Shown: positions 17,382 through 29,682 of the stretch, piece after piece
How positions within the stretch are numbered: position 1 is the stretch's first letter
How the letters are laid out: each line of letters begins with the position of its first letter
From: Acidimicrobiia bacterium
Lineage (GTDB): Bacteria > Actinomycetota > Acidimicrobiia > Acidimicrobiales > Poriferisodalaceae
Direction of reading: 5' to 3'
Assembly: GCA_022822525.1 (NCBI GenBank)
Contig: JAJEBN010000062.1
Coordinates: 62,001 to 126,000, forward strand
Length of the DNA: 64,000 nt
Program-made: the position numbers and the translations under genes
The notes under the pieces: model-generated
What the model saw: only the letters and a program-made list of their open reading frames with translations
Database searches by the model: none
Told to the model about the DNA's origin: nothing

Positions 17382-18860
17382 TCAGTCGATTGTGACGTTG
17401 TGCGCAATGAGTACGTCGACATCCAAGAACTCTTCGACGTAACCGATTGCCGAGAACCACAGCGTCTTGCCGGTCGCAGTGCAGTTACTCGCGTCTGTGC
17501 CGCCCTTGAGGATGCCGTAGGCAGTCGCGCCGCGGTACCACGGTCCTCCGCTGTCGCCTTTGCAGCCCTTCAGGTCGTCGCCGTACACCCGCACGAAGCG
17601 AGCGGCGCATCGAACCGATGCACCGAATTCTGAGTCAAGACAGGCATCGCTATTGGTCGGTCGGAAGTAGATGTTGATCACCGTGCCGCATGTACTGCCA
17701 GTGTTCTTGCCGGTATGGCAAACAAAATCACCGAGCATTCCCGACCACGATTCGGCCGCCCGCACTACGCGGGTCTTGGGCGGTGAACTCTGGTTGTAGA
17801 CGAACTGTGACTTGAGCTGATGGCCAGACCCGTTTGGGACACGATGAAACTGGGCATCTGCGGTCGTCCCCTTGTAACCCGTCACCCACGGCAGGCTCAC
17901 GCCATGCATGCGCTGCGAACTGGAGCAGTGTCCTGCTGTGATGATGCCGTACGTGCCGGTACCGCGCTGTCTCGCCGCGAAACCGGACGTGCAAGTGCTC
18001 ATGGCACGTCCACCATCGAACATCGCCAAATCGGAATGATCGCGCCCGTCGACAATGGCGTATGGGACACCGATGCGTCCTTGGTAGGCAGCGGTCATCT
18101 GTGCCACGAGGGCGGCCAGCTCGGCGTCGGTCGCAGTCGTCGGGCCAGCAGGGGCATCGATATTGCCCACGGGGCCGGTACCGCCAACTGGGCCTTGTAG
18201 CTCCGAGGGTTCGATCGGTCGCACTAGTGCAGGGTCGATACCGATGTGAAGCGAGTTGCTATCCATGTCCGGGGCCGTGAAGGTCACGGCGGCGGAATAG
18301 TCCGCGACCAATGTCTGATCGTCAACGCGCCCAACAGGGCCGAGGCTGCTGCCGTTGCCGAAGCGATCTTGCGCATCAAGGAGTTCGGCCAAGGAGTGCT
18401 CGGCACCAGTGCGAATCGCGATGTCGTCATGGAGGGTCGCAATAGCAGCGGATGCTGGCTTGGGAGGCTCATCGCCGGCGAGCCATACCCAGCCAGCGAA
18501 CGTGCCAGCATGTTCAATGCCCCAGCCCGCCACCCGCTCAGACTCAAGTTCGCGGATCGAAGCCAGTATCTCTTGGAGCGGCTGGATGCGATCGAGACGC
18601 GACGCCGCCTCGGCCTCAGTCACGCCGTACTCGGCGGCGTAAGCAGCAATAGCGGGATCAACGGCCGACGCAGCATCCGTTGTAGTGCCGACACCTGCGT
18701 CTGGCACCTGTGTGTCGTCGATGACCGTATCGGAACCCTGTGCAGCAGCGCTTGCAGTGCTCGTCAGCAACGCCGCCAATAGGACTAACGAGACGACTGT
18801 TCGACATCGCCATCGACAGTTCGGTCTCGGCTGAGGTACGGGGGCGTTGGTGATGGTCAT
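17382..18860 (-). CDS. Secreted trypsin-fold serine protease with N-terminal pro-region
   Basis: An exported S1-family (streptogrisin/alpha-lytic-like) endoprotease of 492 residues. A Sec signal occupies about 20-40 (VVSLVLLAALLTSTASAAA) after a basic N-tail. A pro-region of ~230 residues with Glu/Ala-rich helices follows, then the catalytic domain. The triad candidates are H311 in TAGHC, D335 in TTADAQF and S437 in GCKGDSGGPWY. Cys290/Cys312 and other pairs suggest disulfides. The ATG at 18860 is fixed by a strong AGGAGGTGACC ribosome site just upstream. Its target is unknown, perhaps nutrient protein degradation. Confidence 0.88.
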   Translation of the reverse strand: MTITNAPVPQPRPNCRWRCRTVVSLVLLAALLTSTASAAAQGSDTVIDDTQVPDAGVGTTTDAASAVDPAIAAYAAEYGVTEAEAASRLDRIQPLQEILASIRELESERVAGWGIEHAGTFAGWVWLAGDEPPKPASAAIATLHDDIAIRTGAEHSLAELLDAQDRFGNGSSLGPVGRVDDQTLVADYSAAVTFTAPDMDSNSLHIGIDPALVRPIEPSELQGPVGGTGPVGNIDAPAGPTTATDAELAALVAQMTAAYQGRIGVPYAIVDGRDHSDLAMFDGGRAMSTCTSGFAARQRGTGTYGIITAGHCSSSQRMHGVSLPWVTGYKGTTADAQFHRVPNGSGHQLKSQFVYNQSSPPKTRVVRAAESWSGMLGDFVCHTGKNTGSTCGTVINIYFRPTNSDACLDSEFGASVRCAARFVRVYGDDLKGCKGDSGGPWYRGATAYGILKGGTDASNCTATGKTLWFSAIGYVEEFLDVDVLIAHNVTID

Positions 18861-18982
18861 GAGGTCACCTCCTGAACGTTCATTAAGTACTGCTGCCGAA
18901 GCTACACCCCACTTTGAGGGCACTTGACCATCACCGTGTCAAGCCGAGCTCGTTGTGCGGTCGCTCACGCAACCGCAGGCAT

Positions 18983-19909
18983 TCAATCCGCGCCGAGCAG
19001 CGCTGCCAGACGTCGAAGGGTGGCAACCACCTCTTCCGCACGCGCTGCGCTTCCGCCCGCGAGCACATCAGCGGCTTCGGCGCTCAAGAGCGACCAAACG
19101 GTCTCCGGATCGCTGTCCTCGGTGTGCTTTCGCAAGAACGCTGTCCAGTCGCGAGCAGGAATGCCGGCCAAGGGCTGACGGATCGCGGCATCGATCCAGT
19201 CGTCCATGATCCCGATGCGAGCAATTCTGCCGAAGTTGTGGCCGCTGTCAGAGACCGGTTCGTCGACCGTGCGGTCCCGGCCGCTATACGGCTCAACGCC
19301 GGTGGGAACGCGGATTGCCGTGTCGCTGCGAGCATCGCGGACGTTCTGCCACCAGTAGTTGCGATACTCAGCGGCATAGCGGGCCGACCATACGCCGGGT
19401 GCGAGCACGCGCGGCTTGCCCGACACCACATTTGACAAGCACCAAGGCACCACGACGAGCAGATCCCACTGACTGCAAGCCATCGGCGTGACCGTGTACC
19501 GAAAGCTCGGTACCGCCTCCTTCGCAAGCAAGTACCAGCCTTTCAGCTCGATTCCCATCGCCACATCGTCGACTCCCTGCGCGCTGCGACTGCGCAGGAG
19601 GACATCCGGAAACGTCTGCGCCTGCCTCACAAATTCATGCAGGGGCCACTCGCCATCGGGATCCCAGACATCGCGCATCCGGTTCAGCGCTTCCACCACC
19701 TGCACTTCGATCGTCGCTCCGAGAACGGTGTTCAAGGCGAATAGATCGGTCGCATCGAGACCTTCCATGACGGTCGGCGACTGGAAGTGAATCGGCAACG
19801 CGGTGAGAGCGTCTCGAACCCGGTTGGAGAGTGACGTGATCCGATGGCTGGGATCCGGCTCGGGCGAGGTTGGCTCGTCCGCGCCCGCGGCGCGAGCTTC
19901 GTTGGGCAT
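18983..19909 (-). CDS. Type II restriction endonuclease (PD-(D/E)XK fold)
   Basis: Probable DNA endonuclease partner of the adjacent methyltransferase. The 308-residue protein has an active-site pattern FPDVLL (P101-D102) followed after 18 residues by GIELKGWYLLAKE (E121-L-K123), the PD-x(n)-(D/E)xK arrangement. The ATG at 19909 overlaps the methyltransferase stop by one base (TGATG), so restriction is translated after modification. The recognition sequence cannot be read from the protein. The reading frame looks intact. Confidence 0.75.
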   Translation of the reverse strand: MPNEARAAGADEPTSPEPDPSHRITSLSNRVRDALTALPIHFQSPTVMEGLDATDLFALNTVLGATIEVQVVEALNRMRDVWDPDGEWPLHEFVRQAQTFPDVLLRSRSAQGVDDVAMGIELKGWYLLAKEAVPSFRYTVTPMACSQWDLLVVVPWCLSNVVSGKPRVLAPGVWSARYAAEYRNYWWQNVRDARSDTAIRVPTGVEPYSGRDRTVDEPVSDSGHNFGRIARIGIMDDWIDAAIRQPLAGIPARDWTAFLRKHTEDSDPETVWSLLSAEAADVLAGGSAARAEEVVATLRRLAALLGAD

Positions 19910-21015
19910 CAGACGTTCTTGCGCGGAGCAGCCGATGCGCCCAAGAGCCGCTGCTCGGCGACATCGGCAAAGCGGTCCACGCACTCAGCTGCGAATGCAT
20001 GCCGCCCACACGCAATTGCTGCGGCGGCGGCACTGCACAACCCGCCGAACGGCTCCCAGACCACATCGCCTGGACGGGTGGCCGCTGTGATGATGCGCTC
20101 CATGAACTCGACCGGCTTCTGGTTGAGGTGGACAGACGCATGGCGGCCCGGGTTGTGAACACGCGGTGCGGAACGGATGCCATTGCCCTTGTAGCGCTCA
20201 TCGCTGTGCAGCGCGGGTCGGGGCCACACGTTCGTCAAGCCGTGGGCGTGAGTCCAAGCGTGGCGCAGCCGCGACCACTCTGACGCAGTGAGGGGCGTAG
20301 TGCCATCCACGGAGTAGTAGGGGGCACCCTTGGGGTCACCATGGCGGTTCGCGTAGGCGACTAGCCGCTCCAGCATCTCGGGCGGCGGGAAGTACCAAAG
20401 CCAATCCTGGGTCAGGTACTTTCGAGTTGCTGCATTGGCGACTCCACACGCCTCGTTTGCGCGGTACAGCGGCAAGCCAGCCCGCAGCCATTCATGGCGC
20501 AGCCACTGCTTGGCGGGCATGACGCCCTCTGCTGTCTCGAATTCCAGACGTCTCCGGTAGAAAACGCAGACTTCAGTAGTCACCGGGAACTGGCGGATCG
20601 TGTCGCCGTTGACGTTGCCAGCGATGTGACTGAGCCCCTTGTCCCAGACGATGCTCTGGACGTAATCCCAGCCAGCGTCCGCCAGCAGAGGATGCACACT
20701 GGCCCAGCCGATCTCCGTATTCCAGAACCACAGCGTCGTAGCCGGGTGGGCGAACTTCGTCCAGTTCTCGATATGCGGGGCATACCAGTTCGGCAATTCC
20801 GACGGAGTGCGCGGATCGCCTGGAAACCCACCGACACCGTACGCGCCGTCGGACATGATCAGCGAGGCCTGGGGCCATTCCACGTAGACGTCAAGAACGT
20901 CGCCGCGGTGCAGTGACCAATGCGGCTGCGATTCATCAAACCTAGCGGAAGCGCGCGTTCGCTCGGACACCACACGACCAGAATAGGCAGGGGGTGTCAC
21001 CGAATCACTGCTCAT
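19909..21015 (-). CDS. Site-specific DNA methyltransferase (N4/N6 amino type)
   Basis: S-adenosylmethionine-dependent DNA methyltransferase protecting the host from the adjacent endonuclease. Motif order is IV first and I last (beta-class). The catalytic motif, normally (D/S/N)PP(Y/F), appears here as SDGAY (about 55-59), followed by GVGGFPGDP, and the AdoMet motif as VVWEPFGG near residue 330. The region HLNQKPVEFM is also typical of this family. Starts at 21015 (ATG) or 21042 (ATG) are possible, and neither has a strong ribosome site. Located directly inside of tRNA-Asp and tRNA-Phe. Confidence 0.85.
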   Translation of the reverse strand: MSSDSVTPPAYSGRVVSERTRASARFDESQPHWSLHRGDVLDVYVEWPQASLIMSDGAYGVGGFPGDPRTPSELPNWYAPHIENWTKFAHPATTLWFWNTEIGWASVHPLLADAGWDYVQSIVWDKGLSHIAGNVNGDTIRQFPVTTEVCVFYRRRLEFETAEGVMPAKQWLRHEWLRAGLPLYRANEACGVANAATRKYLTQDWLWYFPPPEMLERLVAYANRHGDPKGAPYYSVDGTTPLTASEWSRLRHAWTHAHGLTNVWPRPALHSDERYKGNGIRSAPRVHNPGRHASVHLNQKPVEFMERIITAATRPGDVVWEPFGGLCSAAAAAIACGRHAFAAECVDRFADVAEQRLLGASAAPRKNV

Positions 21016-21172
21016 CGCCAACTGTCGTCGATGATCGCACATCGGGCACCCGATGGCTGAACGAGCACTCCGAAACGGGCGCTGATTGCTGATCGAGGTG
21101 GCTATCGTTGCTGCGCTTGCATCGGCAGAGATCCCGGTTTCGACGTCGGCGCAAGCACACAGCAATACAACT

Positions 21173-22939: not shown

Positions 22940-23119
22940 ATGTCTGATATCGATGAGCAGCATGACCCAGAGGCGATCATTGCGACTGAGGGCGACGAGT
23001 TGACCGAAGCCGAGCTGGAACAGGTCCAAGGCGCAACCGGCGGCCAACAAGTCAACCCCGGGGCCGGGGCCGCCGCGTCGGGCTCGGCCAAGGCCGCAAT
23101 CGCCGCAGGGCAAATTTAA
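22940..23119 (+). CDS. Double-glycine-leader peptide precursor 1 (bacteriocin/RiPP-like)
   Basis: A 59-residue product starting at the ATG after GAAGAAAGAGCAGCC. Residues 1-35 are an acidic leader ending GDELTEAELEQVQGATGG, the classic pattern (helical L-x3-EL-x2-V with terminal GG) cleaved by C39 peptidases. The predicted core is QQVNPGAGAAASGSAKAAIAAGQI written in two parts: QQVNPGAGAAAS and GSAKAAIAAGQI. It is Ala/Gly-rich, without Cys, and resembles a class II bacteriocin helix. It converges on the NHLM-type transporters. No database comparison was possible; identity as an exported peptide rests on the leader plus context. Confidence 0.7.
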   Translation: MSDIDEQHDPEAIIATEGDELTEAELEQVQGATGGQQVNPGAGAAASGSAKAAIAAGQI

Positions 23120-23224
23120 ACCCACTCACCCGGCGTCGGCGTCGGCAGCTCATGCCGGAGACCGACAGGACAACATCGGCCGAATGGCAGATCGACCTGA
23201 TCCGAAGGGATGCTGCGCCCGCGG

Positions 23225-26215
23225 CTAGGCGAGCTGGCGCTCCACGAGCTGCCGGAACACCCCGTCGGCGCCGTACAGCTCGTCGAAGCTACCGACCTGC
23301 ACGACGCGCCCCGCCTGCATCACATAGATCCGGTCGGCTTGGCGGATCGTGGACAGCCGGTGCGCGATCACGATGCGGGTGGCGGCAAGGCGCTCAATGC
23401 CGGCCATCACCTGCGCTTGGCTGCGCGAGTCGAGCCAGCTCGTGGCCTCGTCGAGCCACACCACGCGTGGGTTTCGTGCCAGCGCCGCAGCTATACGGAC
23501 TCGCTGGGCCTGCCCGCCTGAGAATGTCGAGCCTTCGGTGACAACGGTGTGCATCTGCATCGGCATCTCGGCGATCTCGTCGGCTACGTCGGCGCGACGC
23601 GCCGCGTGCCACGCGTCATCGACAGTCAAGTCGTCGCCCATCCCGATGATGTTGTCGAGGAGGCTGCCCGGTTGCAGAGCGGCGTCTTGGGTGACCACGC
23701 CGAGTTGCCGCCGCAGCACATGACGATCGAGGAACGCGATGTCGCGGCCGTCGTAGTACACGCTGCCCGAGGTCGGGTCTTCGAGACCGAGCCCCAGCCG
23801 CATCAGCGTGCTCTTGCCGGCACCGGAGTCGCCCACGATCGCGATGAACTCGCCCGGGCGGGCGCTGATCGACACGTCGGTGATGATCTCGGTGTCAGGG
23901 TCGTGGCGAAAGCTGACGTGGTCGAAGCTGACCTCACCCCCGATCTCGAATCCGACGCGGCCGATGCCGGACGGCTCCGGGCGTTCCCGCAGCACCGGGC
24001 GGACCTGCTCATACGCGGGCACTGCCGCTGCCACCGCCTCGAACGAACGGGCCAAGTTGGCCGCGGCTGCGTAAAAGGTCATGGCGACTGCGTAGACGAC
24101 GAGGAAATCGCTGACCTGCAGCTGATCCTCCCCGCGCCACACGGCGACCCCGCACAGGGCCGCACCGATCAGCGCAGGCGTCGCCGCGCCCAGCGACATC
24201 AGGTGCTCGTTGAGGCGTGCAACCGCAATGGTCGCAAGCTGCTGATCGCGATAGTGGCCCGCCCATCGGGCGAAGGCGGACGGCTCGGCGCCGGCACTGC
24301 GCAGCTTGCTGATCCCGCTGATCGACTGCAGCAGCTCGCTGGTGGCGCGACGCTCAGCTGCGAACCTGCGCCGCTGCGGGCCGAACTGCCACAGCCCGAC
24401 CAGCGCGCCGACGGCCACGCTCAGCGCACCCAGCGCGAGGCTGACCAGCGCGAGCGTCAGGTCGTAGGCGAAGGGGATCGCAAGCGTGGGCGCCAGGAAC
24501 GCCACCGCCAGCAGCGAGTTCGCCACCACACCCGACACTTGATCGCGCATCCATTGGAAGCTCGCCATGCGCGAGGCGAGATCGCCGGTAGTGAACCTCC
24601 GAAGAAAATTCGGCGGAAGCGACAGCACACGATCCCAGGCTGCGGCGCTGACGCGTGCCGCAGCGCGCCCTTCGATGCGCATCAGCGAGGTCCCGAGCAG
24701 AATCTGCAGTACCACGCCCACCGCGGCGAAGCCGGCGAGCGCGATCATCACCTGAACCAGCATGTCGCCGGCCGCGCTCACGAGCACCCAGTCGGTGAGC
24801 ACACCGACTGCCACCGCCGGCGCCTGCATGAGCACAGCCGCGACAAGCCCGACCGCAACGAAGCGCACCAGATCTCCCGCGAGCCCTTGACGGGCGACGC
24901 GGGCAAGGTCGCGTGCGCTCGCTGGCTTCTCAGGCGGAAACGTCGGGTAGCACAGCCAACCCGTCTCCGCGAGTTCGGCGGCGCGCTCGGCGCTGAGGCG
25001 ACGTGAGGTTCCGTCGACAGGATCGACCACGCGATAGCGGCCGGTCCAATGCGGCAGCAGCGCGACCGGCTGGCCATCTGCTGCGCGGCGGCCCAGCATC
25101 GCGCCGCTGTCGCCAAGCCACCAGCGGTCCTCGGAGCTGAGCCGCACCTCGCGCGCTCGCACGCCCGATGCGCGCACGACGTCGGTCAAACTGGGCTCAG
25201 CGTCGCCCGAGTCGCCATGACGGAGCGGCGCCCGGAAGTCGATGCCTTGGCGCTTGCCGATCAGCGCCAGCGCCGACATCAGCATCGAGGCGCCGTGCGC
25301 GTCCTGCGTGGGGTGGCGTTCATGGATCCGGCTGAGGCCGACCGCAGCCGACTCGGCGTCGCGGCGGCGCAGCGCCTCGCGTGCGGTCTGCTCATTGACC
25401 GCATCGGCGCGCGCCAGCATCCGGTTGAGCTGCTCCGCGCTCAGCGCAAGCCGATGAAAGTCGTCGAGCGCTTCGAGGAGCCGGCCGTCGGCTGCGAGGC
25501 CCGCCGAGGTGGAGATGCGCAGCGTGCCGTGCGGGGGCGCGGTGAGCCAGGTGTCGGAGGTCAACGGCACAGCGGCGGTGGACTGCGAGAGCGTCTCGGT
25601 GCCCAGATAGGCGACATCGACGGCATCGGACGCGGCCCACGCAACGGTGCCAGGCCGCGCCGACACGATCGTGGCGACGGCTGAGGCGGGCAGGCTCTCT
25701 GAGGCAGCGGGGTCGACAACGGCATCGGGGCGCGGGTGCGGCTCAATCGGTTGAGCAATGGCGTGCGAGACCGAGGCGATCCAAGCGTCAGCCTGAGCGG
25801 CGAGCTCGTCGGCCAGTGCGGGATCGGCCAGATCCGAGCGCAGCAGCCTCGCCAGACGCGTGCCGGGCAGGCCCTTGCCGACGGCCGTCAACGACATGTC
25901 GCTCGCCGCTAACCCGAACACCAGCTGACCCGCCTCGACGCGTGCCAAGTGCCTCGCGCCCGAGACGGCCTCTCCGTCATCGACCTCGAACAGGAACACG
26001 TCGACCGCGCCGCTAACCACGAGGCAGACCTGCGACGGGTCGTCGAGCGTGATGGGCATGTTGGCCGCACTCGTCACGTCCTCGCTCTTGACCAGCGCGA
26101 CCTGCGCGATAAGCGACGTGCGGCTCATCTGCGCCAGCGCGGCCTCCGCAGGCTGAGCATCGTGCGGGCCTCCGTCATCGCCCCGCGCTGCCGATGCCGC
26201 CCGCCGCGTGCTCAT
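23225..26215 (-). CDS. NHLM-type peptide export ABC transporter with N-terminal cyclic-nucleotide-like domain
   Basis: A 996-residue half-transporter. The first ~130 residues resemble a cNMP-binding/cupin-like fold (LDDPSQVCLVVSGAVDVFLFEV). A long linker follows to about 450, then six membrane helices (about 470-750) and an ATPase domain with Walker A VGDSGAGKST, signature STFSGGQAQRVRI, Walker B VVWLDEATSW and H-loop IVIAHRLSTI. It has no C39 peptidase. This architecture is that of the second ABC protein of NHLM bacteriocin systems. The ATG overlaps the stop of the upstream transporter (ATGA). Probably a partner of that protein in a heterodimer. Confidence 0.85.
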   Translation of the reverse strand: MSTRRAASAARGDDGGPHDAQPAEAALAQMSRTSLIAQVALVKSEDVTSAANMPITLDDPSQVCLVVSGAVDVFLFEVDDGEAVSGARHLARVEAGQLVFGLAASDMSLTAVGKGLPGTRLARLLRSDLADPALADELAAQADAWIASVSHAIAQPIEPHPRPDAVVDPAASESLPASAVATIVSARPGTVAWAASDAVDVAYLGTETLSQSTAAVPLTSDTWLTAPPHGTLRISTSAGLAADGRLLEALDDFHRLALSAEQLNRMLARADAVNEQTAREALRRRDAESAAVGLSRIHERHPTQDAHGASMLMSALALIGKRQGIDFRAPLRHGDSGDAEPSLTDVVRASGVRAREVRLSSEDRWWLGDSGAMLGRRAADGQPVALLPHWTGRYRVVDPVDGTSRRLSAERAAELAETGWLCYPTFPPEKPASARDLARVARQGLAGDLVRFVAVGLVAAVLMQAPAVAVGVLTDWVLVSAAGDMLVQVMIALAGFAAVGVVLQILLGTSLMRIEGRAAARVSAAAWDRVLSLPPNFLRRFTTGDLASRMASFQWMRDQVSGVVANSLLAVAFLAPTLAIPFAYDLTLALVSLALGALSVAVGALVGLWQFGPQRRRFAAERRATSELLQSISGISKLRSAGAEPSAFARWAGHYRDQQLATIAVARLNEHLMSLGAATPALIGAALCGVAVWRGEDQLQVSDFLVVYAVAMTFYAAAANLARSFEAVAAAVPAYEQVRPVLRERPEPSGIGRVGFEIGGEVSFDHVSFRHDPDTEIITDVSISARPGEFIAIVGDSGAGKSTLMRLGLGLEDPTSGSVYYDGRDIAFLDRHVLRRQLGVVTQDAALQPGSLLDNIIGMGDDLTVDDAWHAARRADVADEIAEMPMQMHTVVTEGSTFSGGQAQRVRIAAALARNPRVVWLDEATSWLDSRSQAQVMAGIERLAATRIVIAHRLSTIRQADRIYVMQAGRVVQVGSFDELYGADGVFRQLVERQLA

Positions 26216-28413
26216 TGCGAACGCACCAGCTGGCTATAGAGGCCGTCGGCGTCGGCGAGCAGCGTGTCGTGGCTGCCCCGCTGCACCTCCCGGCCGCCGT
26301 CCATGACGATGATCTGGTCGCAGTCGCGGATCGTGCTGAGGCGGTGCGCGACAATGAGGCACGAGCAGCCGCGGCGGCGCAGCGCGTCGTCGATGCGCCG
26401 TTCGGTCTCGGCGTCGAGCGTGCTGGTGGCCTCGTCGAGCAGCAGCACCGAGGGGCGAGTGACAAGAGCACGCGCTATCTCGAGCCGCTGACGCTGGCCG
26501 CCGCTGAAGTTGGCGCCCCCCTCCCGGACATGGGCCTCGTAACCGCCGCGTCGGCGCATGATGTCGTCGTGGATCATGGCGTCGCGCGCTGCGGCCACCA
26601 TGTCCGCCTCAGAAGCGGCGGCATTCCACATGGTGATGTTGTCGCGCACGCTGCCGTCGAACAGCGCTATCTGCTGATCGACCGTGGCCACCGATCCGAC
26701 GAAGACCGGGCGCGGGATCTCACGCGCCGACACACCGTCGAAGAGGACCTCACCCGACCACGGCTCGAACTCGCCGCTGACCAAGCGCAGCAGCGTCGAC
26801 TTCCCCGAGCCGGTCGGCCCTACCACCGCGACGCGCTGGCCGGGCTCGATCGCGAGGCTGAGCCCGTCGATGAGCGGTTCAGTCCGACCCCGGTAGCCGA
26901 AGCGAAGCTCACTCACCTCCACCCGGCCCGCCAGCCGCAGGCGGCCATTCAGCGTCATCACGCGGCCGGGCTGCGACCCGTCGCCGGCACCGCCTGCCGC
27001 GTCGCCGGCAACCGCGGGGTCCGGCTCGGCGGCGGAGATGTCGCGCACCCGCTGCACATCGGCGCCGAGCAGCTCGAACGTGTCCGCGTACAGTACGAAA
27101 CGCCCGATGGGAGCGAGGAAGCTGCCGGCCAGGACGTACACGGCGATCAGCTCGCCGATGCTGAGATCCCCTTCGATGACCCGCCAGCCGCCGAGCCCCA
27201 GCACCGCCAGCGTGCCGCACGCGAGGAACAGCCCCGGCAACGCCGCGTTCACATACGCCAGCTCGACCACCCGCTGACGAGCCGAGAGCTCACGCGCTTG
27301 GTGGCCGCTCCAGCGGACGAAGAAGTCGTTCTCGGCCGCGGTGGCGCGCAGCATGTCGGCCTGGCGCAGCCCGGTGGTCTCGATGCCGAACAGCAGGGCC
27401 TGCTCGCGCCGCAGCAGCCGCTGGTGATCCGCGCGGCGCAGGCTCACCAAGCGCGCGATGGCGACGTTGACCAGCGCCACAGCCAGCACACTCGCGGCAA
27501 TGAGCGGGTCGTAGGCCACAAGCAGGGCCCATAACGCGACACTGGTCACCAGTTCCACCGCGAGACCCACGAGATGCCTACCGGCGCCGTCGGCGATCTC
27601 GTCCACCAATCCGACTCGGGTGGTGAGATCGCCCGCGAAGCGGTGAGCGAAGTACTGCTTGGGCAGGCGCAGCAGATGCTGCAGCAGTCGCTGGGAACGC
27701 ACCACGGCCACGCCGATGGCGATCCGGCGCAGCATGCGCTGCTGCAGCCAGGTCAGCAGGTAGACCGCAGCGCCCGCCAACGCCATGGCAGCAACCACGA
27801 AGCCGCCCCAGCGGGGCGCCTCGCCGCCCAAGACGCTGTCGACGAAGACGCCGAGCAGCACGGGCAGCGCGAGGGCCGGGATTGCCAGCAGCAGCCCGGC
27901 CAGCGCCACGTATGCGAGCGCGCCGCGTGTGCCGGCAAGCCACGGCCACAGTGCGCGCCACGCACTGGGACGCTCCCCGACTGGCCGAAATGACGCCGTC
28001 GGCGCCGCGGTGAGCACCACGCCCGCGTATGCACGCTCCACAGTCGAACGGCTCACGCGGCGACGGCCGTTGGCCGGATCGTTCAGGTGGTACCGGTCGC
28101 CGACGATGCCTTCGAGCACCAAGAAGTGGTTGAACTCCCAGTACAGGATGGCCGGCAGGTCTGTCTCAGCGAGCGAGTCGACCTCCTTGCGCCAGCCGCG
28201 GACCTCCATGCCGTGCTTGTTGCCGGCGCGCACGATCCCTGCGGCACTGGCGCCGTCACGGCCGACGCCGCAGTCGTCTCGCAATTCCTCCAAGGGAACC
28301 CAGCGGCCGAAATGGGCCATGACGGCTGCCAGCGACGCTGCTCCGCATTCGGCCGCCTCGAGCTGGGGAATCAGCGGCGTGCGAATGCTGCGTCGTCGCA
28401 GCAGCGTCGGCAC
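26212..28413 (-). CDS. Peptidase-containing ABC transporter (C39, PCAT/NHLM type)
   Basis: Cleaves double-glycine leaders and exports the peptide. The 733-residue protein starts with a C39 peptidase: catalytic Cys in QLEAAECGAASLAAVMAHFG, His in FNHFLVLEG and Asp in LNDPANG. Six membrane helices (about 160-440) and an ATPase follow, with Walker A VGPTGSGKST, signature NFSGGQRQRLE, Walker B VLLLDEATS and H-loop VAHRLSTI. All catalytic residues are intact. Starts with GTG at 28413, 6 bp after the HlyD-like gene. Substrates are presumably the GG-leader peptides nearby. Confidence 0.9.
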   Translation of the reverse strand: MPTLLRRRSIRTPLIPQLEAAECGAASLAAVMAHFGRWVPLEELRDDCGVGRDGASAAGIVRAGNKHGMEVRGWRKEVDSLAETDLPAILYWEFNHFLVLEGIVGDRYHLNDPANGRRRVSRSTVERAYAGVVLTAAPTASFRPVGERPSAWRALWPWLAGTRGALAYVALAGLLLAIPALALPVLLGVFVDSVLGGEAPRWGGFVVAAMALAGAAVYLLTWLQQRMLRRIAIGVAVVRSQRLLQHLLRLPKQYFAHRFAGDLTTRVGLVDEIADGAGRHLVGLAVELVTSVALWALLVAYDPLIAASVLAVALVNVAIARLVSLRRADHQRLLRREQALLFGIETTGLRQADMLRATAAENDFFVRWSGHQARELSARQRVVELAYVNAALPGLFLACGTLAVLGLGGWRVIEGDLSIGELIAVYVLAGSFLAPIGRFVLYADTFELLGADVQRVRDISAAEPDPAVAGDAAGGAGDGSQPGRVMTLNGRLRLAGRVEVSELRFGYRGRTEPLIDGLSLAIEPGQRVAVVGPTGSGKSTLLRLVSGEFEPWSGEVLFDGVSAREIPRPVFVGSVATVDQQIALFDGSVRDNITMWNAAASEADMVAAARDAMIHDDIMRRRGGYEAHVREGGANFSGGQRQRLEIARALVTRPSVLLLDEATSTLDAETERRIDDALRRRGCSCLIVAHRLSTIRDCDQIIVMDGGREVQRGSHDTLLADADGLYSQLVRSQ

Positions 28414-28419
28414 TGGCGC

Positions 28420-28992
28420 CTACCGGAGGCCGGCCGTGGCGATGAAGCGAATAGGCGACCGGTGCTCAGTCACGATGCGCACACGACAGGTGCTGCCCGA
28501 CAGCGCCGCTGTGGAGACGTCATCGGTCAGTTCCAGCCAGACACGGTGTGTGGCGGCAGGGTCCCACAGCGCGGTGTCGAGCAGAAATTCGCTTCTTTGC
28601 GAGTCGCCGAGCATGACTTCCCGAACGACTGCGTCCAAGGCGCCATCGGTGCCAACCGGTGTTACACGCGCCCCCATGCCGGCCGTGACATCACGCGCTT
28701 GACGAGGGTTGAGGAGCGCGAGAACTGCCAGTTGCGAGTTCGCAGGCACAGCAACGTCTGCGCCTAACGCTTCACCGACGTTGTCACGCCCCACGAGCAG
28801 GCAGTCGGCTGAGTGGCCCCGCTCAATCGTCCCGAAGACCGTCCAAGCCAGCACGCCGAGCAGCGCCGCGGCCAGCAGCGCCAGGAACAGCCACTCGTGC
28901 GGTGCTGTGATGCGCAGCAGCCCGTCGACAGGCTCCGCTCGCCCTCGGCGAGCGAGGGCTTCCTCGCGAAAAAGCTGTCTGCGTCGTGCCAT
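28420..28992 (-). CDS. Short HlyD-like secretion protein of NHLM type
   Basis: A 190-residue membrane-anchored accessory protein. N-terminal FREEALARRGRAEPVDGLLRI precedes a single helix (about 33-55, LFLALLAAALLGVLAWTVFG), the arrangement of NHLM-system secretion proteins. The extracytoplasmic part is unusually short. It lacks the coiled-coil hairpin of ordinary HlyD proteins and retains beta-barrel-like segments (GMGARVTPVG, RVRIVTEHRSPIRF). In a monoderm no outer-membrane bridge is needed, which may explain the shortening (inference). A GTG at 29001 is an alternative start. Confidence 0.7.
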   Translation of the reverse strand: MARRRQLFREEALARRGRAEPVDGLLRITAPHEWLFLALLAAALLGVLAWTVFGTIERGHSADCLLVGRDNVGEALGADVAVPANSQLAVLALLNPRQARDVTAGMGARVTPVGTDGALDAVVREVMLGDSQRSEFLLDTALWDPAATHRVWLELTDDVSTAALSGSTCRVRIVTEHRSPIRFIATAGLR

Positions 28993-29106
28993 CGGGCTCA
29001 CACACTAGGACGCACGCGTATCGGCGAACCCCTGCTGTGGCGCGGACGCTTCCCGCGTTAGCTGACCGTGTTCATACGAGGGGCCAACGCCAGATGGAAC
29101 GTCGCC

Positions 29107-29289
29107 CTACTTATTGGAGCCTGAGTAGTTGTTATGGGTCGTGTGAGTGCCGTAGGGGGATGACGAGCCGCTCGACCCAGACCCTTTGCCGCCGCTCACA
29201 TGCTGCAGCTCCTCAGAGGTGAGCTCGCGCTCGTCGAGGTCCGCTTCAACCGGGGGGGGGGAGGCCTTTTCGACCCTTGCATCAGACAT
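29107..29289 (-). CDS. Double-glycine-leader peptide precursor 2 (Ser/Gly/His/Tyr-rich core)
   Basis: A 60-residue product starting at an ATG with an AGGTTTCTGA leader and GGAGG site. Leader residues 1-34 include ADLDERELTSEELQHVSGG with the GG cleavage signal. The core is KGSGSSGSSSPYG followed by THTTHNNYSGSNK: polar, flexible, with no Cys and no hydrophobic stretch, which is unlike pore-forming bacteriocins. Codons 10-13 are encoded by a run of ten C (in frame here). It lies 105 bp upstream of the HlyD-like gene on the same strand, so it may head the export operon. A diverged second copy lies directly upstream. Confidence 0.75.
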   Translation of the reverse strand: MSDARVEKASPPPVEADLDERELTSEELQHVSGGKGSGSSGSSSPYGTHTTHNNYSGSNK

Positions 29290-29421
29290 TCAGAAACCTC
29301 CAGGGGCCGACTCGGAACGCCCAGTATGTCAGAGCAGCAGCCACAACGCGAAACTCGCCCAAGCAGCGCGGCATGTCTGCAGAAACCAGGGCCGACGCCG
29401 ACACGCCCGGGGGTAAGACTT

Positions 29422-29578
29422 CTAGATGTGATAGTAGGGCGAGTGTGCGTTGTTATACGCAGTCGTCTTGTTGCCACCGCCGCTCACGTCTTGGAGCTCT
29501 TCGGAAGTCAGCTCGCGCTCGTCGACATCCGCTTCAACGGGGGGGGGGGGAGGCCTTTTCGACCCTTGCATCAGACAT
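29422..29578 (-). pseudogene. Peptide precursor 3, out of frame at a 12-C tract (possible phase-variable gene)
   Basis: Starts with the same ATG, ribosome site and first ten codons as precursor 2. The run of twelve C at 29539-29550 (plus-strand G) shifts the frame, so translation ends after MSDARVEKASPPPR. With eleven C the frame would continue as VEADVDERELTSEELQDVSGG and then GNKTTAYNNAHSPYYHI to the TAG at 29422-29424, giving a normal GG-leader peptide with a Tyr/Asn/His-rich core. The downstream codons are intact, which argues against old decay. Either a slipped OFF state, a sequencing error in the homopolymer, or a recent mutation. Confidence 0.75.
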
Positions 29579-29611
29579 TCAGAAACCTCCTGAGGCTGAC
29601 TCGGAACGCCC

Positions 29612-29641
29612 AGTATGTCACAGCCATCGCAGCAGCCACAA
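29612..29641 (-). promoter_or_regulatory. Promoter candidate of peptide precursor 3
   Basis: Minus-strand hexamers TTGTGG (29636-29641) and CATACT (29612-29617) are separated by 18 bp, about 34 bp before the ATG. In the other copy the same hexamers are only 12 bp apart (29323-29346), too close for a standard sigma-70 promoter. Confidence 0.4.
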
Positions 29642-29682
29642 CACTGGATACGTCCGGCTGCTCATTCGAACAGAGCGGTGCT

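What the first reader, a model, noticed from the sequence alone, without database searches (positions are those of the whole stretch)
22940..29642. NHLM-type peptide export locus with three GG-leader peptides and no modifying enzyme
Seen: three short genes have acidic leaders ending in a GG motif, around two large ABC proteins (one with an intact C39 protease, one with a cNMP-like N-domain) and a short HlyD-like protein. The predicted cores differ completely: an Ala/Gly-rich helix-like peptide, a Ser/Gly/His/Thr/Asn-rich peptide and a Tyr/Asn/His-rich peptide. None has Cys, and no cyclase, dehydratase, radical-SAM or other tailoring gene lies nearby. Known: NHLM systems usually export modified peptides. 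Inference: unmodified or externally modified secreted peptides, perhaps signalling or metal-binding rather than lanthipeptides.
Basis: partly seen in the sequence, partly recalled or inferred. Interest (0 to 1): 0.85.

Follow-up and report, generated by a model that had tools for sequence, protein, structure and literature searches.

The report
Peptide exporter with slippery peptide genes
An uncultured actinobacterium carries a machine that cuts and exports small, apparently unmodified peptides, and two of the peptide genes contain long runs of C that differ in length between related species in a way that would switch them on, weaken them or turn them off at random.

Summary
One strand encodes a C39-peptidase ABC transporter (TIGR03796, above cut-off), a partner ABC with a cNMP-type N-domain (TIGR03797, below cut-off) and a short adaptor recognisable only at its N-terminus. 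Three short acidic-leader peptides flank them. Relatives conserve all of this; no tailoring gene was recognised nearby. The precursors lack NHLP/Nif11 domains. pepA's conserved cleavage site is GA, not GG.

The pepB and pepC leaders contain C10 and C12 tracts. The pepC tract is 12, 10 and 13 nt in three species, while the sequence after it is nearly unchanged. Two start codons 7 nt apart give three states: n=11 uses ATG1, n=12 uses ATG2, and n=10 or 13 has no in-frame start. A congener has an independent G9 run in another such leader. G000 holds 18 C/G tracts of 10 nt or more. Across four species, tracts tend to lie before signal peptides, and two lie in Type ISP restriction-modification genes. 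Tracts of 12+ occur in 11/11 genomes of the genus but 2/28 of the rest of the family.

Best reading: an exporter of apparently unmodified GG peptides whose precursors switch by slipped-strand phase variation. Switching within a population and peptide function are untested.

The parts
22940..23119 (+). pepA precursor, 59 aa: MSDIDEQHDPEAIIATEGDELTEAELEQVQGA | TGGQQVNPGAGAAASGSAKAAIAAGQI; convergent to the ABC2 gene
   Evidence: ORF; orthologues in G001, G002, G009 and a homologue convergent to ABC2 in L069, all ending LEQ(V/I)QGA; pN/pS about 0.3-0.8 in pairwise comparisons
23225..26215 (-). ABC2: permease/ATPase, 996 aa, with an N-terminal domain of cyclic-nucleotide-binding fold
   Evidence: TIGR03797 best family, residues 311-995, 670.6 bits, below cut-off 709.4; structure model and PDB match to CNB domains; intact ATPase motifs
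26212..28413 (-). ABC1: peptidase/permease/ATPase, 733 aa, N-terminal C39 peptidase that should cut the double-glycine leaders
   Evidence: TIGR03796 855.2 bits, above cut-off 853.3; Peptidase_C39 9e-31; C23, H96, D112; full-length match to PCAT1 4ry2 and ComA 8hf4
28420..29001 (-). short HlyD-like adaptor, 193 aa, one N-terminal membrane segment
   Evidence: TIGR03794 only over residues 24-61, 26.8 bits, cut-off 156.2; relatives fall mostly into lengths near 183-193 and near 295-303 aa
29107..29289 (-). pepB precursor, 60 aa: MSDARVEKASPPPVEADLDERELTSEELQHVSGG | KGSGSSGSSSPYGTHTTHNNYSGSNK
   Evidence: orthologues in G001, G002, G009 and, without the transporter next to it, in G006; pN/pS 0.2-0.4 against G000
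29252..29261 (-). C10 tract (C on the coding strand) in the pepB leader; C7 in the other species
   Evidence: frame from the first ATG is open at n=10
29422..29571 (-). pepC precursor, 49 aa from the second ATG: MQGSKRPPPPPVEADVDERELTSEELQDVSGG | GNKTTAYNNAHSPYYHI; the first ATG lies 7 nt upstream at 29576-29578 and is out of frame in this assembly
   Evidence: in G001 and G009 the same reading frame has no start codon at all
29539..29550 (-). C12 tract in the pepC leader; 10 in G001, 13 in G009
   Evidence: frame consequence computed
29262..29327 (-). upstream/leader repeat of pepB (promoter region, GGAGG, ATG TCTG ATG), near-identical to the pepC copy
   Evidence: sequence; G002 has lost pepC and carries pepC's upstream region joined to pepB
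29551..29616 (-). upstream/leader repeat of pepC
   Evidence: as above

Best explanation
This is a cleave-and-export locus for small, apparently unmodified double-glycine peptides, with phase-variable precursors. ABC1 (C39 peptidase) pairs with ABC2 to cut after GG (pepB, pepC) or GA (pepA) and export 17-27-residue Cys-free peptides, with a short adaptor. The C tracts in the pepB and pepC leaders lose or gain bases by slipped-strand mispairing during replication. For pepC, n=11 puts the first ATG in frame, n=12 the second ATG 7 nt on (14 nt from the GGAGG, so probably weaker), and n=10 or 13 gives no product: strong, weak and off. A clonal population would thus be a mixture of cells exporting different peptide sets. 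By analogy with the EbfG peptides of Synechococcus (biofilm) and the Nap peptides of gonococcus, the exported peptides most likely act between kin or at the cell surface. Shown here: genes, leaders, conservation, tract length differences, frame consequences, genus-wide tracts. Inferred: transporter pairing, cleavage, switching within a population, and role.
For: C39 exporter above family cut-off with intact catalytic residues. Leaders match the L-12/L-7/V-4/G-2/G-1 pattern and are conserved in relatives. pepC tract 12/10/13 with near-identical sequence after it (pN 0-0.012). In 180 kb of NHLM-locus sequence from seven genomes (G000's whole 64-kb window included), all four C/G runs of 10 or more lie in pepB or pepC leaders, and an unrelated GG leader in G003 holds a G9 run. 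G000 has 18 such tracts, with a flat length spread up to 17. 14 of 44 tracts from four species lie just upstream of a signal-peptide-like sequence vs 5.5% of random positions (binomial p 5.5e-8, not corrected for orthology). Tracts at the same place in different species differ in length: 12/11, 12/13, 15/18, 10/12/15, 13/15, 13/14. Tract genes include Calx-beta exported proteins and Type ISP specificity domains. C12+ tracts in 11/11 genus genomes, 2/28 other family genomes. Precedent: napR poly-G removes a GG leader in gonococcus (PMC11798529).
Against: No read-level data: all tract lengths come from single assemblies of metagenome bins, and a homopolymer of 10-13 can be off by one. Differences are between species, not shown within one population. 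The orthologous L055/L171/L188 tracts are all 12. pepC comparisons rest on few substitutions. The family comparison is partly confounded by G+C (0.52-0.67 in the sampled genomes with readable sequence). No expression or peptide data.
Confidence: 0.68

Rival explanations
1. The exporter and peptides are real, but the tracts are neutral or assembly noise: pepC is decaying and the frame differences are homopolymer errors or degeneration.
For: Assemblies are metagenome bins; pepC is lost in G002; two of three pepC alleles are out of frame.
Against: The tract itself is present in three species with downstream sequence kept nearly unchanged. Tract position is conserved at several unrelated loci while length varies, and tracts concentrate at exported proteins and R-M genes, which noise would not do.
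Confidence: 0.2
2. The tracts act through transcriptional or translational slippage, so every cell makes some in-frame peptide whatever the genomic length.
For: Long homopolymers are known to cause polymerase slippage, as reported for Buchnera poly(A) tracts (PMC2831843). It would explain conservation of pepC's core in out-of-frame alleles.
Against: Does not by itself explain length differences at many loci; not tested for poly-C here.
Confidence: 0.1
3. The peptides are modified after all, by an enzyme encoded elsewhere in the genome, as in dispersed RiPP systems.
For: Haft et al. report NHLP precursors far from their modifying enzymes (PMC2887384); the pepB core is rich in Ser/Thr. The genome was not searched for tailoring enzymes.
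Against: The precursors lack the NHLP and Nif11 leader domains, mature peptides contain no Cys, and no recognised tailoring gene accompanies the operon at two different genomic sites.
Confidence: 0.2

Closest known systems
NHLM/NHLP export cassette (TIGR03794, TIGR03796, TIGR03797; Haft et al. 2010, PMC2887384)
   Same: C39-peptidase ABC, second ABC lacking an active peptidase, adaptor, short cores behind a GG leader
   Different: precursors lack NHLP or Nif11 leader domains; no tailoring gene recognised; ABC2 and the adaptor score below the family cut-offs; adaptor only 193 aa
EbfG1-4 / PteB of Synechococcus elongatus (PMC4997328, PMC9981879)
   Same: several paralogous GG-leader peptides exported and cleaved by a C39 ABC protein; high expression in only part of the population
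   Different: EbfG heterogeneity was seen with an expression reporter, no homopolymer tract is described in the passages read; no sequence comparison of cores made here
Neisseria gonorrhoeae nap island (PMC11798529)
   Same: bacteriocin-like peptides with GG leaders whose genes carry homopolymer tracts of varying length; in napR the poly-G tract decides whether the GG leader is present
   Different: a pathogen of people and another phylum; tracts are poly-G and poly-T; here two overlapping start codons would give three states; no relationship of the peptides was tested
Haemophilus influenzae lic genes (own knowledge, not tested)
   Same: repeat tract after alternative start codons giving graded expression
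   Different: tetranucleotide repeats in lipopolysaccharide genes

Membership tests
NHLM-type export cassette | C39 peptidase ABC, TIGR03796 | tested here: met
   855.2 bits, cut-off 853.3
NHLM-type export cassette | second ABC, TIGR03797 | tested here: not met
   670.6 bits vs cut-off 709.4, though best family and full length; relatives G006 and G056 pass
NHLM-type export cassette | HlyD-like protein, TIGR03794 | tested here: not met
   26.8 bits vs 156.2, residues 24-61 only
NHLP / Nif11 precursor families | nitrile-hydratase-like or Nif11 leader domain | tested here: not met
   no TIGR03793 or TIGR03798 match for the three peptides; the best NHLP-clan match is NF038399 on pepA, 14.3 vs 40
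class II double-glycine bacteriocin leader (TIGR01847) | leader motif above cut-off | tested here: not met
   pepB 15.2 bits vs 15.7; pattern matches by eye
simple-sequence contingency locus (phase variation) | long tract inside the reading frame near its 5' end | tested here: met
   C10 in pepB, C12 in pepC
simple-sequence contingency locus (phase variation) | tract length differs between relatives out of multiples of three, changing the frame | tested here: met
   12/10/13 in G000/G001/G009
simple-sequence contingency locus (phase variation) | reversible switching within one population | not testable with these tools
   no reads available
modified RiPP cluster | tailoring enzyme with the precursor | tested here: inconclusive
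   none recognised among the neighbouring ORFs, but not every neighbour was scanned and the rest of the genome was not searched

The most novel reading that the evidence does not exclude
A whole genus of uncultured Acidimicrobiia, probably sponge-associated, runs a repertoire of poly-C/G contingency loci that covers exported adhesin-like proteins, a restriction-modification system and a three-state switch on secreted double-glycine peptides, so that each population is a standing mixture of secretion types.
Probability: 0.55. Interest if true: 0.75.

Novelty: new variant of a known kind. Interest (0 to 1): 0.62.

Why it matters
Phase variation by homopolymer slippage is best known from host-adapted pathogens of people and animals; in the held library, searches pairing it with sponge symbionts or Acidimicrobiia listed no relevant paper. 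A symbiont-like actinobacterial genus using it would suggest that life with an animal host or its phages favours the same switch outside pathogens. The tracts also make the question directly testable from existing metagenome reads, without culture. For peptide export it shows an NHLM-type transporter pair serving short-leader, apparently unmodified peptides.

Tried and rejected
Considered NHLP/Nif11 RiPP: rejected as membership because no precursor matches those families. Considered pepA cleavage at GG: rejected because the GG position moves between species while GA stays. Considered that poly-C runs are simply expected in a 67% G+C genome: G000 has fewer runs of 10+ than independent bases would give by my own estimate (about 86 against 18), but the length spread is flat to 17 instead of falling about threefold per base, and positions are not random. 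Considered the short adaptor as something peculiar to this locus: rejected, adaptors near 190 aa also occur in relatives from other phyla. Searches for papers on phase variation in sponge symbionts, Acidimicrobiia or combined with GG leaders gave only the Neisseria precedent.

Full report
The observation. Translation and family searches confirm the six genes. ABC1 is a C39-peptidase exporter above the TIGR03796 cut-off with C23, H96 and D112 in place, and matches PCAT1 and ComA over its whole length. ABC2 has TIGR03797 as its best family but below cut-off; its 310-residue N-terminal extension folds, in a model of mean pLDDT 84 (residues 1-445 modelled), like cyclic-nucleotide-binding domains. 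The adaptor is 193 aa and matches TIGR03794 only in its first 60 residues.

Conservation. Of the ten other genomes of the genus, six have the ABC2 gene, against one of fifty more distant ones. In G001, G002 and G009 the operon sits at the same place, between a malic-enzyme gene and purM (purM, purF, purL and the malic enzyme are named from their sequence, not from a family scan). pepA, pepB and, except in G002, pepC are there. In G006 pepB remains between purM and the malic-enzyme gene without the transporter, which lies on another contig with its own peptide. In L069 an operon with 83% identical ABC1 lies beside what look like glycolate oxidase genes and still has a pepA homologue convergent to ABC2. 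So pepA travels with the operon and the peptides are real genes. pepB is under purifying selection (pN/pS 0.2-0.4 against G000), pepA less so.

Leaders. pepB and pepC end LTSEELQ(H/D)VSGG. None of the three matches the NHLP or Nif11 families. Canonical NHLP-type leaders do occur beside related transporters (L071, L072, L073 and L138; the first two are other Acidimicrobiia bins), so the switch to short leaders belongs to this group of species.

The tracts. The window has only two C/G runs longer than 7, both inside leaders: C10 in pepB and C12 in pepC. The pepC tract is 10 in G001 and 13 in G009. Below it the sequence is almost unchanged (0-1 nonsynonymous, 1-2 synonymous differences per pair). 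Two ATGs 7 nt apart precede it. Computed products: n=11 full precursor from ATG1; n=12 from ATG2; n=10 and 13 only short aborted products, and a scan of the public records shows no start codon in the pepC frame of G001 and G009. G000's pepB has the pepC-type leader start and a C10 run, whereas the other species have C7 there, which suggests exchange between the two copies. In 180 kb of NHLM-locus sequence from seven genomes (G000's whole window included), all four runs of 10 or more are in pepB or pepC. G003 has G9 in a different GG leader.

Genome-wide. G000 holds 18 C/G tracts of 10 or more, lengths 10 to 17. I fetched these and tracts of three congeners. With a simple signal-peptide test, 14 of 44 tracts lie within 60 codons upstream of one, against 5.5% of random window positions; orthologues are not independent, so the p-value of 5.5e-8 is too small. 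Clear cases are L055, L056, L065 and L066, and L061 by eye; L055 and L061 carry Calx-beta domains, the latter below cut-off. L062 and L063 carry tracts in Type ISP specificity domains. Orthologous tracts keep their place and differ in length at several loci. Runs of 12 or more are found in all 11 genomes of the genus and in 2 of 28 others of the family, some of them in one case at a contig end; part of this may be base composition.

Interpretation. The simplest account is phase variation of exported proteins, with the GG peptides among its targets. The gonococcal nap island is a direct precedent for tracts in GG-leader genes, and EbfG/PteB for apparently unmodified GG peptides exported by a C39 ABC protein and needed for biofilm. 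What the peptides do here is not known; kin-directed or matrix roles are an inference from those cases.

Limits. Bins, not isolates; single assemblies; no reads, RNA or peptides. The sponge origin rests on a few record titles and on my recollection of the bin names. Not every neighbouring ORF was scanned for tailoring domains and the rest of the genome was not searched for them.

Noticed in passing
L055 1191, L056 1176 and 1230, L061 1263, L065 1234, L066 291 (G000): C/G tracts of 11-17 just upstream of signal peptides of predicted exported proteins, some with Calx-beta domains; frames are open in some and shut in others.
   Followed up: partly
L062 1240-1253 and L063 1204-1213 (contig C71 of G000): C tracts in the Type ISP specificity domain of a restriction-modification gene; the orthologous tract of L063 is 12 in G001 and 15 in G002.
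   Followed up: partly
G003 contig C22 119003-119231; G002 contig C99 19-198: Clusters of many C runs within about 200 bases; unexplained, possibly repetitive arrays or assembly ends.
   Followed up: no
L168 8271-8447 (G006): pepB kept as an orphan at the old site after the transporter operon is absent from there; presumably served by the other operon on contig C27.
   Followed up: yes
window 18983-21165: DNA methyltransferase (N6_N4_Mtase) and an adjacent unknown ORF, perhaps its restriction partner, next to tRNA-Asp/tRNA-Phe.
   Followed up: no
window 17382-18923: Trypsin-like protease with an N-terminal signal-like stretch.
   Followed up: no
L067-L134: ABC1 relatives at 45-56% identity occur in bins of many phyla (Gemmatimonadota, Nitrospirota, Gammaproteobacteria and others), several from sponges by title; suggests exchange within that habitat.
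   Followed up: no
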